Positions 54,630 through 59,472 of a stretch of 64,000 bases of DNA are shown piece by piece (position 1 is the first letter of the stretch; each line of letters begins with the position of its first letter). Position numbers and translations under genes: made by a program. This stretch comes from Aromatoleum aromaticum EbN1 (GTDB lineage: Bacteria > Pseudomonadota > Gammaproteobacteria > Burkholderiales > Rhodocyclaceae). The stretch spans positions 2,108,001 to 2,172,000 of the forward strand of contig NC_006513.1 of assembly GCF_000025965.1 (NCBI RefSeq), given 5' to 3'. The notes below the pieces were generated by a model that did no database searches, was not told where the DNA came from, and was given only the letters and a program-made list of their open reading frames with translations.

Positions 54630-55973
54630 TCAGCTCCGGTTGAGCCGCTTCCACAAGGTCGTGCGCGACATGCCGAGCCGGCGCGCGGCTTCCGCCCGGT
54701 TGCCGCCGCACTGCTGGAGCATGCGCTGGATCTGCGCCTGCTCCTCGTCCGGCGTCACCTGCGTCGCGTAGTAGCGCGTCAGCGGCAGGGGCAGCAGTGC
54801 TTCGCGCGTCGACTCGACGGGCGTGACGACTTCGGGCAGCAGGTGCTGCGGCAGGATCGTCGCGCCGTCGGAATTGACGACGGCATATTCGAGCGCGTTG
54901 AACAGCTGCCGCACGTTGCCCGGCCAGCTGAAGGACTCCATCGCCACGATCGCCTCCGGCGACAGCCGCAGGTCGGGCCGGCGGTAGCGTTCGCCGAGTT
55001 CGCCGAGCAGGCGGCTCGCGAGCAGCGCGATGTCCTCGCGGCGCTCGCGCAGCGCCGGCACGTGCAGCGGCAGCACGTGCAGGCGGTAATACAGATCCTC
55101 GCGGAACTCGCCGCGGCCGACCATCCCGGCGAGGTCGCGATGGGTCGCAGCGACGACGCGCACATCGACCTTGCGCGGATGGTTCTCGCCGACGCGCACG
55201 ATTTCGCGCTCCTGCAGCACGCGCAGCAACCGGGTCTGTGTTGCCGGAGAAATCTCGCCGATCTCGTCGAGCAGCAGAGTGCCGCCGTTGGCCGCTTCGA
55301 AGCGGCCCAGGCGGGCGCCGGTCGCCCCGGAAAACGAGCCTTTGGCATGGCCGAAGAGTTCCGATTCCTCGAGGTTTTCCGGCAGCGAAGCGCAATGCAC
55401 GGCGACGTAGGGGCCTTTTGCGCGCGTCGAATTGTCGTGCAGTGCGCGTGCAACCAGTTCCTTGCCGACGCCGCTTTCGCCGGTGATCAGCACGTTGGCT
55501 TCACTTGCCGCGACGCGCAGCACTTTCTGGTAGAGGTCCTGCATCGCGCGGCTGCGCCCGGTCAGTCCGCCGAGCTGCCAGCGGTCGCGCACCTCGGCTT
55601 CGAGTTCGAGTTCGCGCGAGCGGTCGCGCAGCACGATCGCGCAGTACAGCCCGGAATCGTTCGGCGGTAGCAGCATCGCCCACATGCGCAGCGGAATGTC
55701 GACGCCCGTGGGCGAGCGCACAACGATGTCCTGGACCTTGTCCTCGCCCTTCGTCGGGGTGAGGGAACATTCTCCGCGTGCCACGCAGGCGCGGGCACAC
55801 TCGGTGCCTTCGAACAGCGTCGGGCACAGTTCGTCGACGAGGCGCCGGTTGTCATGTCCGATCATCCGCGCGGCTGCGCTGTTCATCTCGAGGACGCGGC
55901 GCGCCCGATCGAGAAACAGCACGCCTTCTTCGAGGCTGTCGAGAAATACTCGCAGGGTTGCCAGACTCGGCAT
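54630..55973 (-). CDS. Sigma-54-dependent transcriptional activator with Cys-rich PAS domain
   Basis: 447 residues. Residues 1-125 are a PAS domain ([27 protein letters not shown]) carrying four cysteines (C50, C59, C63, C69), a possible redox, metal or Fe-S sensor. Residues 135-370 are an AAA+ sigma-54 domain: Walker A GESGVGKE (165-172), Walker B LLLDEIGE, and the RNAP loop reads GSFSGA (212-217) instead of GAFTGA. A C-terminal Fis-type HTH is [17 protein letters not shown]. No receiver domain. It is divergent from the heme-copper operon, whose upstream region has a -24/-12 promoter, so it is the probable activator. Confidence 0.9.
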
Positions 55974-55988
55974 CTGAATCCTCCTTTT

Positions 55989-56021
55989 GTTCAGACTGAA
56001 CGTCCAGAGCGAACGTTCAGT
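55989..56021. promoter_or_regulatory. Overlapping inverted repeats (candidate activator binding site)
   Basis: GTTCAG-A-CTGAAC at 55989-56001 is followed in part by ACTGAACGT (55995-56003)-N9-ACGTTCAGT (56013-56021), perfect 9-bp arms. The half-site GTTCAG thus occurs three times. The site lies about 80-100 bases upstream of the -24/-12 promoter and just before the regulator gene, the right place for an upstream activating sequence and autoregulation. Confidence 0.7.
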
Positions 56022-56063
56022 TTCTCCTCCCCTACATTCCAGCAGCTAAGCGCTGCGTGAAAA

Positions 56064-56077
56064 ATGATTGTGATCAA
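56064..56077 (+). promoter_or_regulatory. FNR/DNR box upstream of the heme-copper operon
   Basis: ATGATTGTGATCAA matches TTGAT-N4-ATCAA at 9 of 10 positions. It lies between the candidate activator site and the -24/-12 promoter. It implies control by oxygen or nitrogen oxides, alone or with the sigma-54 activator. Confidence 0.72.
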
Positions 56078-56091
56078 CGATTTGCCAGATG

Positions 56092-56107
56092 TGGCACAGT
56101 GTTGGCT
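56092..56107 (+). promoter_or_regulatory. Sigma-54 (-24/-12) promoter of the heme-copper operon
   Basis: TGGCAC-N5-TGGCT fits the TGGCAC-N5-TTGCW consensus with one mismatch and correct GG-GC spacing (GG at 56093-56094, GC at 56105-56106). The expected start is near 56118, 32 bases before subunit II. A divergent sigma-54 activator gene supports it. Confidence 0.75.
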
Positions 56108-56149
56108 AGGAGAATTACAAGGGGGACGGCTTGTCCCGAAGACGATCGC

Positions 56150-56698
56150 ATGACAGGAGAATCCACCGTGCAACCAATCGCTTGGCAAATATCGCTCGTG
56201 CTGATGGCACTCGTTGCGTTCGGCTTTGCCTTTGTCGCCATCAATTCCGGGCGGCGCCAGGAAGACTATTCGCCGCTGCAAAAAAGCGCCTATCGCCTGC
56301 GCTCGCGCCTTTTCTGGGGCTTGGTGCTGGTGTTCGGCCCGGCGATGATCTACACGCTGTTCGAACTGCCGTACGACGCGGCGCGGGCTAACACCGGGGC
56401 AGGCCCGGTGCAGGTCGTCGACGCGACAGGCTACCAGTGGCGCTGGGAACTCAGCCAGGACCAGTTCGCTGTCGGCCAGCCGGTCGAGTTCCGCGTCACC
56501 AGCGCCGATGTCAATCACGGCTTCGGCATTTACGACGCGAACCTGCATCTGGTCGCGCAGACGCAGGCAATGCCCGGCTACACCAACACGCTGCGTCACA
56601 CCTTCAGCGAGGAAGGGACGTACAAGATCCTGTGCATGGAGTACTGCGGCCTCGCGCACCACAACATGTTGACCGAAATCCGGGTCGGCGCTCAGTAA
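56150..56698 (+). CDS. Cytochrome c oxidase/NO reductase-like subunit II with CuA site
   Basis: 182 residues. Two N-terminal membrane helices (residues about 11-33 and 54-71) precede a cupredoxin domain with a complete CuA site: H123 (DVNHGFGIY), C162, E164, C166, H170 and M173 in CMEYCGLAHHNM. It accepts electrons from a c-type cytochrome or similar. It is shorter than typical aa3 subunit II. The start has AGGAG-like upstream sequence within the sigma-54 leader. The next gene starts 14 bases later. Confidence 0.9.
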   Translation: MTGESTVQPIAWQISLVLMALVAFGFAFVAINSGRRQEDYSPLQKSAYRLRSRLFWGLVLVFGPAMIYTLFELPYDAARANTGAGPVQVVDATGYQWRWELSQDQFAVGQPVEFRVTSADVNHGFGIYDANLHLVAQTQAMPGYTNTLRHTFSEEGTYKILCMEYCGLAHHNMLTEIRVGAQ

Positions 56699-56712
56699 CG
56701 GAGGAGACGAAC

Positions 56713-58200
56713 GTGGCGACCTACACTTACGAACATATTCCCGACCAGGGAGCGAAGGCCGGCGTGCTGGCCTACCTCGCGACATCGGCCGTCGTGCTGC
56801 TGCTGATGATGGTCTTCGGCCTGCTGATGCGGCTCGAGCAGGCGCAGTGGATCTCGATCGGCGCGATCCGCTTCTACGAACTGATGACCTTGCATGGCGC
56901 CGGCATGGTCGGCATCGCCGCCATCGCCGGCGCGTCGATCATGTGGCACTTCCTGCGCCAGTACGTCGACCTGTCGTCACGCATCTTCGTCGCGAACCTC
57001 GTTTTGTTCCTCGTCGGCGTCGTGATGATCCTCGGCAGCGTGCTGCTCGGGCATTTCCACGGCGCGTGGACGTTCCTCTATCCGCTGCCCGGCAAGTCGA
57101 TGGGCTTGTGGAGCCCCGGCGCGGCGGCGCTCTTCATGGGTGGGATGCTCGTCATCGGCGTCGGCTTCCTGCTGCTGCATCTCGACATCGCGCGTGCGCT
57201 CGTTGGGCGCTACGGCAACTTCTCGCGCGCGCTCGGCTGGCCGCAGCTCTTCGGCCACGATGACGGCAACGCCCCGCCGCCGACCGTGGTTGCGAGCGCG
57301 ATGGTCACCGTCGTCAATGTCGTCGGCCTGGTCGTCGGGGCGAGCATCCTGGCGATGATGCTGGTGAACCTCTACGTGCCCGAGTTCGACATCGATCCGC
57401 TGCTGGCGAAAGGCATGATCTACTTCTTCGGCCACATCTTCATCAACGCCACGATCTACATGGCGGTGATCGGCGTCTACGAGATCCTGCCGCGCTACAC
57501 GCAACGGCCGTGGAAGTCGAACAAGGTGTTCCTCGCATCGTGGACCGCCTCGACGCTGATGGTGATGTTCATCTTCCCGCACCATCTGCTGATGGACTTC
57601 GCGTTCCCGAAGTGGATGCTGATCATGGGGCACATCATCGGCTACCTGAACACCGTGCCGATCCTCGTCGTCACCGGCTACGGCGCGCTGATGATCGTGT
57701 ATCGCTCGGGTATCCGCTGGGACATGGCGTCGAAGCTGCTGTTCCTGTCGCTGTTCGGCTGGGCGGCAGGCGCGATGCCGGCCTTCATCGACGGCACGAT
57801 CACGGTCAATTACGTGATGCACAACACGCTGTGGGTGCCCGGGCACTTCCACACCTACCTGCTGCTCGGCATGGTGACGATGGTGTTCGGCTTCATGTAC
57901 TACCTCGGCAAACCGAGCCACGAGCACGACGATCACCTGGTTGACCGTATCGCGTTCTGGCTCTTCACGTCGTCGGTGCTCGGCTTCACGATGAGCTTCC
58001 TGTATTCCGGCAAGGAAAGCGTCGCGCGCCGCTACGCTGCCCACCTGCCCGAATGGGTGCCGTACGACCGCATCGCGTCGGTGTTCGCAGTGCTCGTGAT
58101 CGCCTCGTCGCTGGTGTTCATCGGGCGCTTCTTCGCCCGCATCGGGCTCGCGCGCCACGACTACCAGCGCGCTCCGGTCGCGCGCAGCGTCACCGCATGA
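56713..58200 (+). CDS. Heme-copper oxidoreductase subunit I, NO-reductase-like (Tyr replaced by Asn)
   Basis: 495 residues from GTG with GGAGG upstream; about 12-14 membrane helices. All metal ligands are present: H61 (low-spin heme), H241 and H290/H291 (CuB or FeB), H378 and H380 (hemes; WVPGHFHTYLL). In oxidases the helix VI ligand is followed four residues later by the cross-linked Tyr (GHPxxY); here it reads GHIFIN, with Asn245. Loss of this Tyr is typical of NO reductase-type members, several of which carry a CuA subunit II. Exact subfamily (for example sNOR or nNOR-type) cannot be fixed by eye. Confidence 0.82.
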   Translation: MATYTYEHIPDQGAKAGVLAYLATSAVVLLLMMVFGLLMRLEQAQWISIGAIRFYELMTLHGAGMVGIAAIAGASIMWHFLRQYVDLSSRIFVANLVLFLVGVVMILGSVLLGHFHGAWTFLYPLPGKSMGLWSPGAAALFMGGMLVIGVGFLLLHLDIARALVGRYGNFSRALGWPQLFGHDDGNAPPPTVVASAMVTVVNVVGLVVGASILAMMLVNLYVPEFDIDPLLAKGMIYFFGHIFINATIYMAVIGVYEILPRYTQRPWKSNKVFLASWTASTLMVMFIFPHHLLMDFAFPKWMLIMGHIIGYLNTVPILVVTGYGALMIVYRSGIRWDMASKLLFLSLFGWAAGAMPAFIDGTITVNYVMHNTLWVPGHFHTYLLLGMVTMVFGFMYYLGKPSHEHDDHLVDRIAFWLFTSSVLGFTMSFLYSGKESVARRYAAHLPEWVPYDRIASVFAVLVIASSLVFIGRFFARIGLARHDYQRAPVARSVTA

Positions 58201-58210
58201 GTCCGGGTCG

Positions 58211-58825
58211 ATGAGTGCGGCCGCGCGCAGCGTGGTCCTGACGGTGCTGGTGGCCGTTCTCGGCACCGGCGCCTTCTGGGGGGGGACTGACGGTTTCAGC
58301 GCCTTTACCGCTGAAACCGCCCGCCGGGCCGACATCCTGCGCGCGCCGCGCCCGCTGCCTGCGGCCGTCCTCGAAGACCAGGACGGCCGTGTCTTCCGGC
58401 TCGACGATTACCGCGGGCGCTTGCTCGCGGTCGAGTTCATCTACACGCGCTGCACGACCATCTGCCGCAGCCTCGGCACGGCGTTCAAACAGATCCGCGA
58501 CCGTGTGCCGCCCGACGCCCTCGGGCGTGAGGTCGCGCTGCTGAGCATCAGCTTCGACCCCGAGCGCGACGATCCGGCGAGCCTCAAAGCCTACGGCAGC
58601 GGTCATGGCGCCGACGGCGAGCACTGGCGCATCGCGCGAGTGCGTGACGCAGCGCAGCTGCAGGCGCTGCTGAAGGCCTTCGGCGTCGTCGTGATCGCGG
58701 ACCGCTTCGGCGGGTTCGAGCACAACGCCGCGATCCACCTCGTCGCCCGCGACGGGCGGCTCGTCGAAATCAGCGATCTCGAGGCGCCGCTCCAGTTTGC
58801 CCAGAAGCTCGCGGAGGCGCTGTGA
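58211..58825 (+). CDS. SCO1/SenC-family copper chaperone
   Basis: 204 residues. An N-terminal membrane anchor (VVLTVLVAVLGTGAFWG) precedes a thioredoxin fold with the copper motif VEFIYTRCTTICRSLG (CxxxC) and the distal His in FEHNAAIHLV. It probably metallates the CuA site of the adjacent subunit II. Ten bases after subunit I. Confidence 0.92.
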   Translation: MSAAARSVVLTVLVAVLGTGAFWGGTDGFSAFTAETARRADILRAPRPLPAAVLEDQDGRVFRLDDYRGRLLAVEFIYTRCTTICRSLGTAFKQIRDRVPPDALGREVALLSISFDPERDDPASLKAYGSGHGADGEHWRIARVRDAAQLQALLKAFGVVVIADRFGGFEHNAAIHLVARDGRLVEISDLEAPLQFAQKLAEAL

Positions 58826-59472
58826 TCGCCGCGCTCGCCCGTCCGCAAGTCGGGCTCCGCGTGCTCGGCGCGCTGTACCTGCTGCTCGCGGCGCCGCCGC
58901 TGCGCACTTCGCTCGAAGCGACGATGAGCGGCCACATGCTGGTGCAGATCCCGCTCCTCGCCGCGATCGGCTTCGTCGCCTGTCGCCTGCTGCCGGTAGC
59001 GCGGCAGGAGCGCCTGCTCGACGCGGGCGGCGGTGCGGTGCCGTATGTCATCGTGGCGGTCTTCGCGTCGACGTGGTGGATGCTGCCACGGGCGCTCGAT
59101 GATGCGCTCGCGAGCCCGCTCGTCGAGGCGGCGAAGTTCGTCAGCCTGCCCGTGCTCGTCGGGCTGCCGCTCGCGCTGGCGTGGCGACGGCTCGGGCCGA
59201 TCGGCCGCGGCTTCGTCTGGACCAACTTCATCAGCATGCTCGCGGTGCTCGGCTGGCTGTACATCGCCGCGCCGGTGCGCGTGTGCAACAGCTACCTCGT
59301 CGACCAGCAGGAAAGCGCCGGCTGGCTGATGGTGAAGCTCGCGCTGCTGCTGTTCGCCGGCTGGCTCGGCAGCCTGTTCGTCGGCGGCGGCGGAAGTCCT
59401 GCCCTGTCCGCCACGCAGCCGGCTGCGCCGCGCTCGGCGCAGAGTGGCGACGGCGGTGCGAAGCGCAACTGA
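58822..59472 (+). CDS. Polytopic membrane protein of the heme-copper operon (CtaG-like)
   Basis: 216 residues; the GTG overlaps the SCO stop (GTGA). About five to six membrane helices. A segment MSGHMLVQIPLL and a later STWWMLPRALDDAL recall the caa3 assembly factor CtaG (SGHMLQQL-type motif), with conserved His and Trp residues that could bind copper. It is likely an assembly factor. The Ser/Gly/Ala-rich tail (after LFVGGGG) is not conserved. Confidence 0.65.
   Translation: MIAALARPQVGLRVLGALYLLLAAPPLRTSLEATMSGHMLVQIPLLAAIGFVACRLLPVARQERLLDAGGGAVPYVIVAVFASTWWMLPRALDDALASPLVEAAKFVSLPVLVGLPLALAWRRLGPIGRGFVWTNFISMLAVLGWLYIAAPVRVCNSYLVDQQESAGWLMVKLALLLFAGWLGSLFVGGGGSPALSATQPAAPRSAQSGDGGAKRN

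What the first reader, a model, noticed from the sequence alone, without database searches (positions are those of the whole stretch)
54630..59472. Sigma-54-controlled heme-copper operon with NO-reductase-like active site
Subunit I keeps all heme and CuB-site histidines but has Asn245 where oxidases have the cross-linked Tyr (helix VI reads GHIFIN). It is paired with an intact CuA subunit II, a SCO chaperone and a CtaG-like protein. The promoter region combines an FNR box and a -24/-12 promoter next to a divergent sigma-54 activator. This arrangement is unusual for an oxygen reductase and suggests a CuA-type NO reductase or a detoxification enzyme.
Basis: partly seen in the sequence, partly recalled or inferred. 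Interest (0 to 1): 0.8.

Follow-up and report, generated by a model that had tools for sequence, protein, structure and literature searches.

The report
Sigma-54-controlled sNOR nitric oxide reductase operon
The genes encode a member of a known but little-tested family of nitric oxide reductases (sNOR), here next to a dedicated sensor-activator protein and a matching DNA control region that I did not find described, which suggests the enzyme handles toxic nitric oxide rather than oxygen.

Summary
The operon is real and belongs to a known family. Subunit I has the diagnostic sNOR asparagine (N245) where oxidases have the cross-linked Tyr. It groups with sNORs in a tree, is 80% identical to a Nitrosospira multiformis protein, and has the published norSY-senC-orf1 order. 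The host matches Aromatoleum aromaticum EbN1, which also has a cNOR. NO reduction is predicted, not shown.

The control region is the less ordinary part. A PAS/AAA+/Fis activator with four invariant PAS cysteines lies by 26 of 80 related operons. All 26, and the window, have a -24/-12 promoter. Of these 27 regions 25 have GTTCA-N2/3-TGAAC, against 0 of 53 without the activator. Nineteen other loci have an Rrf2 (NsrR-like) gene within 4 kb, none of the 26 does; 9 of the 19 have an NsrR-like operator. This favours an NO role over the published high-affinity-oxidase reading.

Searches of one open-licence library found no paper linking sNOR to sigma-54.

The parts
54630..55973 (-). Divergent regulator: N-terminal PAS with four invariant cysteines (C50, C59, C63, C69), sigma-54 AAA+ domain, Fis-type HTH; bacterial enhancer-binding protein
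   Evidence: Pfam/NCBIfam; the four cysteines invariant in 27 of 27 aligned, window included; not NorR: 0 of 18 own-genome matches over the NorR cut-off
55989..56020 (.). Predicted upstream activator site of the regulator: GTTCAGACTGAAC...GAACGTTCAG; starts 103 bp upstream of the -24 element
   Evidence: GTTCA-N2/3-TGAAC in 25 of 27 promoter regions with the regulator (window included; 22 with N3), 0 of 53 upstream regions without; coordinates
56064..56077 (+). FNR/DNR-like partial palindrome ATGAT-N4-ATCAA (9 of 10)
   Evidence: 9 of 10 in 10 of 27 regions: nine Aromatoleum sequences, window included, plus L068
56072..56084 (+). IHF-like site GATCAACGATTTG (8 of 9 to WATCARNNNNTTR) at a fixed distance from the -24 element
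   Evidence: at least 8 of 9, 18-20 bp upstream of the -24 element, in 23 of 27 regions; shuffle control; consensus recalled
56092..56107 (+). -24/-12 (sigma-54) promoter TGGCACAGTGTTGGCT, 10 of 11
   Evidence: 9 or more of 11 in 24 of 24 divergent-regulator loci (0.87 expected from shuffles), also in the 2 loci with the regulator downstream; consensus recalled
56168..56698 (+). norS-type subunit II with intact CuA site (alternative start 56150)
   Evidence: PF00116, TIGR02866 below its cut-off; CuA residues conserved
56713..58200 (+). norY-type subunit I (sNOR): heme and CuB histidines kept, N245 in place of cross-linked Tyr
   Evidence: PF00115; alignments; tree; AlphaFold model pLDDT 81, pTM 0.85, heme-copper fold
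58211..58825 (+). SCO/SenC copper chaperone
   Evidence: PF02630 1.1e-15; found just downstream of subunit I in 75 of 80 relatives
58822..59472 (+). orf1: membrane protein of unknown fold and role, conserved with sNOR
   Evidence: found in 78 of 80 relatives; no Pfam match itself, 7 of 23 members hit DUF1404, best E 4e-6; helical model pLDDT 90, no PDB match at E <= 0.001

Best explanation
The operon is an sNOR (norSY-senC-orf1). Inferred mechanism: a periplasmic electron donor reduces CuA in subunit II; electrons pass through heme b to a high-spin heme/CuB site that lacks the cross-linked Tyr and reduces 2 NO to N2O; SenC (and perhaps orf1) helps copper assembly. Transcription is by sigma-54 RNA polymerase from the -24/-12 promoter. 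It is switched on by the divergent PAS activator bound to GTTCA-N3-TGAAC sites roughly 75-105 bp upstream of the -24 element, with a bend by IHF likely, when the PAS domain (four cysteines, plausibly an iron-sulfur cluster) senses NO or loss of oxygen. Shown here: family membership by sequence, the residues, the promoter elements, and their linkage to the regulator. Inferred: NO as substrate, the signal, the Fe-S cluster, binding of the regulator to these sites, and IHF.
For: Tree and 80% identity to the N. multiformis protein. N245 conserved in 80 of 81. Asn listed as the sNOR residue (Table A4). Gene order as in norSY-senC-orf1. Promoter and upstream sites linked to the regulator. The regulator's PAS region was found in 2 of 369 class genomes, both with subunit I on the same contig. 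Within 4 kb an Rrf2 gene lies by 0 of 26 operons with the regulator and 19 of 54 without (Fisher p 0.0002, relatedness not corrected). NsrR-like operator at 14 or more of 18 in 9 of 19 Rrf2 loci, 1 of 27 regulator regions, 1 of 34 others. Formate/nitrite-transporter-like gene within 4 kb in 34 of 80 loci (two of them confirmed with Pfam).
Against: No NO turnover or expression was tested. In N. europaea the sNOR genes rise 2.7- to 10.8-fold under O2 limitation and were read as a possible high-affinity oxidase (PMC6967387). The genome already has a cNOR (L037). EbN1 multi-omics passages I saw name only NorBC for NO reduction. 35 of 80 loci have neither regulator nor Rrf2 neighbour within 4 kb, the Nitrosospira ones among them, and 12 of the 14 class genomes with subunit I lack the PAS regulator, so sNOR does not depend on it. 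One regulator locus, L052, has an Rrf2 gene 6.6 kb away. Rrf2 identity is NsrR-like only: all six scanned score below the NsrR cut-off. Nothing shows that the PAS cysteines hold a cluster or sense NO.
Confidence: 0.75

Rival explanations
1. It is a high-affinity oxygen reductase: the CuA-type enzyme reduces O2 without the usual Tyr and is induced by hypoxia.
For: PMC6967387 proposes this for N. europaea sNOR from O2-limited induction and the HCO-like centre. Y249, eight residues after H241, is invariant (81 of 81) and might supply a redox-active tyrosine.
Against: Cross-linked Tyr absent in all sNOR-clade sequences aligned; separate from A-type and ba3 groups; Rrf2 (NsrR-like) neighbours and operators in a part of the relatives. 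Y249, two helical turns away, is probably too far for a cross-link (inference, no coordinates measured).
Confidence: 0.15
2. An FNR/DNR-type protein, not the divergent activator, is the main switch through the 56064-56077 palindrome, or acts jointly with it.
For: 9 of 10 match in all nine Aromatoleum sequences examined (window included) and L068. A published precedent places tandem NorR sites, a DNR site and a sigma-54 promoter before P. stutzeri hmp (PMC1274295). EbN1 has Fnr/Crp-family regulators of denitrification (PMC9765128).
Against: Only 10 of 27 regions have it, while the overlapping IHF-like site is in 23 of 27 at a fixed distance; in these ten the site starts ATGAT or CTGAT, not TTGAT.
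Confidence: 0.2
3. The four PAS cysteines are structural or a thiol switch, and the regulator senses something other than NO/O2 (for example a redox state or metal).
For: No cluster or ligand evidence; PAS domains bind many ligands (general statement also in PMC6615313, passages).
Against: In the class sample the PAS region occurs only with sNOR (2 of 2) and it does not overlap with Rrf2 neighbours within 4 kb.
Confidence: 0.35

Closest known systems
sNOR / norSY-senC-orf1 of ammonia oxidisers (Nitrosospira, Nitrosomonas, Nitrosococcus)
   Same: Subunit I 80% identical to an N. multiformis protein; Asn at the Tyr site; same four genes in the same order
   Different: The Nitrosospira, Nitrosovibrio and Nitrosomonas loci in my set have no PAS regulator of this kind; N. 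oceani lists NsrR at Noc2967 near Noc2969-2971
bNOR (CuANOR) of Bacillus/Schinkia azotoformans
   Same: CuA-type NO reductase, also Asn at the Tyr site (Table A4; L174 motif GHTAVN; L174 named bNOR here by motif only)
   Different: Groups inside the ba3 branch, not with sNOR; the S. azotoformans genome carries both kinds
NorR regulon (sigma-54 activator of norVW/norAB/hmp)
   Different: Regulator scores 334 bits against a NorR cut-off of 476, over the AAA+/HTH part only; a PAS with four Cys in place of the NorR sensor (GAF, recalled); sites are GTTCA-N3-TGAAC, not GT-N7-AC
NsrR-controlled NO-stress genes
   Same: NsrR-like Rrf2 genes and operators lie by other sNOR operons
   Different: No Rrf2 gene found within 4 kb of any of the 26 operons with the regulator; the window's own flanks were not searched with the Rrf2 query

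Membership tests
sNOR | Asn in place of the cross-linked Tyr of subunit I (Table A4 of PMC8756737) | tested here: met
   N245; N in 80 of 81, X in one
sNOR | Subunit I clusters with proteins of taxa published as sNOR bearers | tested here: met
   Clade of 22-24 rows with N. multiformis (Nmul genes named; my strain is Nl7, not the published one) and R. pomeroyi (Silicibacter in Table A4), SH-aLRT 99-100 (quick tree, 50 rows)
sNOR | Cupredoxin (CuA) subunit II, SenC and orf1 in one operon | tested here: met
   co-transcription itself not tested
sNOR | Reduces NO to N2O | not testable with these tools
   No assay; function is disputed in print
Oxygen reductase (A or B type) | His-Tyr pair on helix VI | tested here: not met
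   GHIFIN against GHPIVY
bNOR/eNOR | Branching with these groups in the tree | tested here: not met
   bNOR and eNOR group with ba3 at SH-aLRT 99, window elsewhere; two rows each, named by motif
NorR (regulator) | Score over the NCBIfam NorR cut-off | tested here: not met
   334 bits, cut-off 476; 0 of 18 own-genome matches over the cut-off
Sigma-54 activators | AAA+ sigma-54 interaction domain, Fis-type HTH, cognate -24/-12 promoter | tested here: met
   PF00158 1.2e-68, PF02954 8.8e-13; promoter
CtaG (last gene) | Match to a CtaG family or to the annotated 'cytochrome c oxidase assembly protein' of T. roseum | tested here: inconclusive
   No CtaG family among the 12 listed for 23 members; hhalign probability 0.3% to a single sequence; no PDB fold match, and the PDB may hold no such fold

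The most novel reading that the evidence does not exclude
A so far undescribed NO- or O2-sensing sigma-54 activator family, with a PAS domain that binds an iron-sulfur cluster through C50/C59/C63/C69, is dedicated to sNOR operons and stands in for NsrR there, so that sNOR is a true NO-responsive NO reductase under two alternative NO sensors.
Probability: 0.3. Interest if true: 0.65.

Novelty: new variant of a known kind. Interest (0 to 1): 0.5.

Why it matters
Whether sNOR is an NO reductase or a high-affinity oxidase is disputed in print and matters for N2O budgets of nitrifiers and denitrifiers. The regulatory linkage found here (NsrR-like in some lineages, a dedicated sigma-54 activator in others) is evidence for NO that does not rest on the enzyme's own sequence. 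Aromatoleum aromaticum, for which gene deletion is published (PMC10715001, start of abstract in the listing), allows a direct test. The enzyme itself is a known family.

Tried and rejected
FNR box as the conserved element: weakened, because the overlapping IHF-like site is more widely conserved. NorR identity of the regulator: rejected. CtaG identity of the last gene: not supported by Pfam, hhalign or Foldseek. A wider regulon in the own genome: GTTCANNNTGAACG with up to 1 mismatch has 155 matches (79 forward, 76 reverse, palindromes counted on both strands) against 53 for the reversed-pattern control; 4 are exact; I checked the 20 that came with loci, and only the window's own has a further half-site and a 10-of-11 sigma-54 site about 100 bp away. 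135 were not checked, and the excess over the control is unexplained. Small genes between promoter and subunit II in some relatives (a cytochrome c in L052, a DUF4148 protein in L046, small probably exported proteins in L049, L051 and L064-L069) were noted, not solved; of these last I scanned two from L066 and one from L051, without a Pfam match at E <= 1.

The subunit I model was used only for the fold; I had no coordinates, so the active-site geometry was not measured.
Full report
What is there. The window holds a divergent pair of transcription units: a regulator on the minus strand (54630-55973) and, on the plus strand, subunit II, subunit I, a SCO/SenC protein and a small membrane protein. 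The genome has 4,727,255 bases in 3 contigs, the first of 4,296,230 bases. These sizes match Aromatoleum aromaticum EbN1 as I recall them, and the nearest named relatives are Aromatoleum species at 92-98% identity. It has seven COX1-family proteins. By motif they are three A-type oxidases, a cbb3, a diverged C-type-like protein, a cNOR, and this one.

Active site. In the HMMER alignment to the ba3-type chain 4gp8_A, GHPIVY lines up with GHIFIN, so Asn245 takes the place of the cross-linked Tyr. In the window plus the 80 best relatives of a genome scan (80 kept of 407 confirmed), N245 is N in 80 of 81 and X in one. H241, H290, H291, H378 and H380 are invariant in 81 of 81, H61 in 80 of 81 with one gap; Y249 is also invariant. 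The CuA ligands of subunit II are kept. The AlphaFold model of subunit I (pLDDT 81, pTM 0.85) matches heme-copper oxidase folds.

Family. A quick maximum-likelihood tree of 50 proteins puts subunit I beside the Nitrosospira multiformis protein (80% identity), in a clade with sequences from N. halophila, Schinkia azotoformans, Thioalkalivibrio and Ruegeria pomeroyi (SH-aLRT 99-100). bNOR-, eNOR- and ba3-like proteins, named by motif, form another group (99), A-type oxidases a third (100). The tree does not settle how the three relate. Table A4 of PMC8756737 (passage seen) lists N for sNOR (Betaproteobacteria, Silicibacter, Deinococcus, Geobacillus), N also for CuANOR, Q for eNOR, D for gNOR, Y for oxygen reductases, and zero predicted proton channels for sNOR. 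PMC4940428 (passages) gives the operon name norSY-senC-orf1 and names Nmul genes. In my 80 loci subunit II precedes subunit I in 79, SCO follows in 75, orf1 in 78, and all four are present in 73; at least two of the gaps (L078, L092) lie at contig ends. So the enzyme is an sNOR and the gene order is ordinary for it. Within the sampled genomes it is patchy: 13 of 17 of the same genus and 0 of 44 others of the family and order, 14 of 369 in the class, 6 of 398 in the phylum sample; each count includes the own genome.

Function dispute. PMC6967387 (passages) argues from O2-limited induction that sNOR may be a high-affinity oxidase, and says that more work is needed; it also cites indirect NO-reductase evidence from Nitrococcus mobilis. 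PMC3772326 (passages) treats sNOR as an NO reductase and lists NsrR (Noc2967) near the operon (Noc2969-2971). PMC11388526 (passages) calls sNOR a proposed NOR and eNOR a biochemically characterised one. The primary PNAS paper was not held; I know it only from recall.

Regulator. Orthologues of the window's regulator (phmmer over 400 bits) lie by sNOR in 26 of 80 loci: 24 divergent and 2 downstream. Five loci have under about 1.6 kb of sequence upstream of subunit II, so a divergent regulator could be missed there. The 26 span Aromatoleum, Sulfuritalea, Noviherbaspirillum, a Ramlibacter MAG, Thiobacillus, other Burkholderiales and Rhodocyclales MAGs, and Thiohalobacter. C50, C59, C63 and C69 of the PAS region are invariant in 27 of 27. 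A search with the PAS region alone (E <= 1e-10) hits only 2 of 369 class genomes, both with sNOR subunit I on the same contig; 12 further class genomes have subunit I without it. In the own genome it has no other match better than E 0.035. NorR is excluded by score.

Promoter. In a fixed 220 bases upstream of subunit II, a -24/-12 site of 9 or more of 11 was found in 12 of 24 rows with a divergent regulator, window included (0.46 expected from mononucleotide shuffles), and in 3 of 56 others (0.59 expected). Two of those three are the loci with the regulator downstream (L062, L082); the 56 also include L070, whose divergent regulator that filter missed. Other relatives have genes between promoter and subunit II, and over the whole interval between regulator and subunit II 24 of 24 divergent loci have such a site (0.87 expected; intervals of about 230-1200 bases). 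GTTCA-N2/3-TGAAC is in 25 of 27 regions with the regulator, against 0 of 53 upstream regions without; it starts 100-111 bp upstream of the -24 element in 21 of the 25 and 75-92 bp in four (103 in the window). That distance suits an enhancer site. A 13-base IHF-like match lies 18-20 bp upstream of the -24 element in 23 of 27; the FNR-like palindrome is in 10 of 27. Mean best scores are 8.0 against 6.5 shuffled for IHF and 7.7 against 6.1 for FNR, so both exceed chance and they overlap. An FNR/DNR input in Aromatoleum is not excluded; PMC1274295 (passages) describes such a mixed NorR/DNR/sigma-54 region for P. stutzeri hmp.

The NsrR contrast. With the R. pomeroyi Rrf2 protein as query, a Rrf2 gene lies within 4 kb of sNOR in 19 of 54 loci without the regulator and in 0 of 26 with it (Fisher p 0.0002, not corrected for relatedness; L079 and L080 look like near-copies; L052, with the regulator, has one 6.6 kb away). 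Six Rrf2 proteins were scanned, five of the 19 and that of R. pomeroyi: among equivalog models NsrR scored best in five and RirA in one (L116), all below the equivalog cut-offs. With a recalled NsrR consensus, 9 of the 19 loci have a site of 14 or more of 18 in the 220 bases upstream of subunit II, against 1 of 27 regulator regions and 1 of 34 others; mean best score 13.3 against 10.7 shuffled, 10.1 against 9.8 and 10.9 against 10.3. R. pomeroyi shows the divergent Rrf2 gene, a formate/nitrite transporter directly after orf1, and a truncated haemoglobin about 5 kb upstream. A formate/nitrite-transporter-like gene lies within 4 kb in 10 of 26 and 24 of 54 loci. I read this as two alternative NO-linked control modes for one enzyme. 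35 of 80 loci have neither.

What stays open. NO turnover, the signal, the cofactor of the PAS domain, binding of the regulator and of IHF, and the role of orf1 are inference or unknown. Claims of absence in print rest on one open-licence library: sNOR with sigma54 found 0 papers; sNOR with sigma-54 found 1, PMC7285500, whose passages do not link the two; sNOR with NsrR found 4. The EbN1 multi-omics paper (abstract and passages) names NorBC, CcoNOP and CoxABC, has no hit for 'heme-copper' or 'SenC' in its main text, and offers sigma-54 control of denitrification genes only as a possibility.

Noticed in passing
L052:9068-9418; L046:8671-9021; L049, L051, L064-L069 between the -24/-12 site and subunit II: Some related operons carry extra genes in front of subunit II: a cytochrome c (L052), a DUF4148 protein (L046), and small, probably exported proteins with a DPLxxSFxRML-like or GYDR motif; the three of these scanned matched no Pfam family. 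The cytochrome c could be the electron donor.
   Followed up: partly
L036 (own genome C1:1716501-1717739): A diverged C-type-like COX1 protein (helix motif WWFGHNVLG) on a long branch in the host genome; a protein with the same motif occurs in Noviherbaspirillum (L183).
   Followed up: no
L121 (own genome C1:3546337-3546350): An exact GTTCA-N3-TGAACG site with a 9-of-11 sigma-54-like site about 158 bp downstream; possibly a second target of the regulator, or chance.
   Followed up: no
L170:5965-7449 (Thermomicrobium roseum plasmid): A deep relative of sNOR with Asn at the Tyr site, a formate/nitrite transporter gene next to it and an annotated oxidase-assembly gene where sNOR operons have SenC and orf1.
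   Followed up: partly
L185 (Terasakiella sp.) and L159 (Nitrospinaceae): eNOR-like subunits with Gln at the Tyr site (GHSSQQ) in genomes that also hold sNOR.
   Followed up: no
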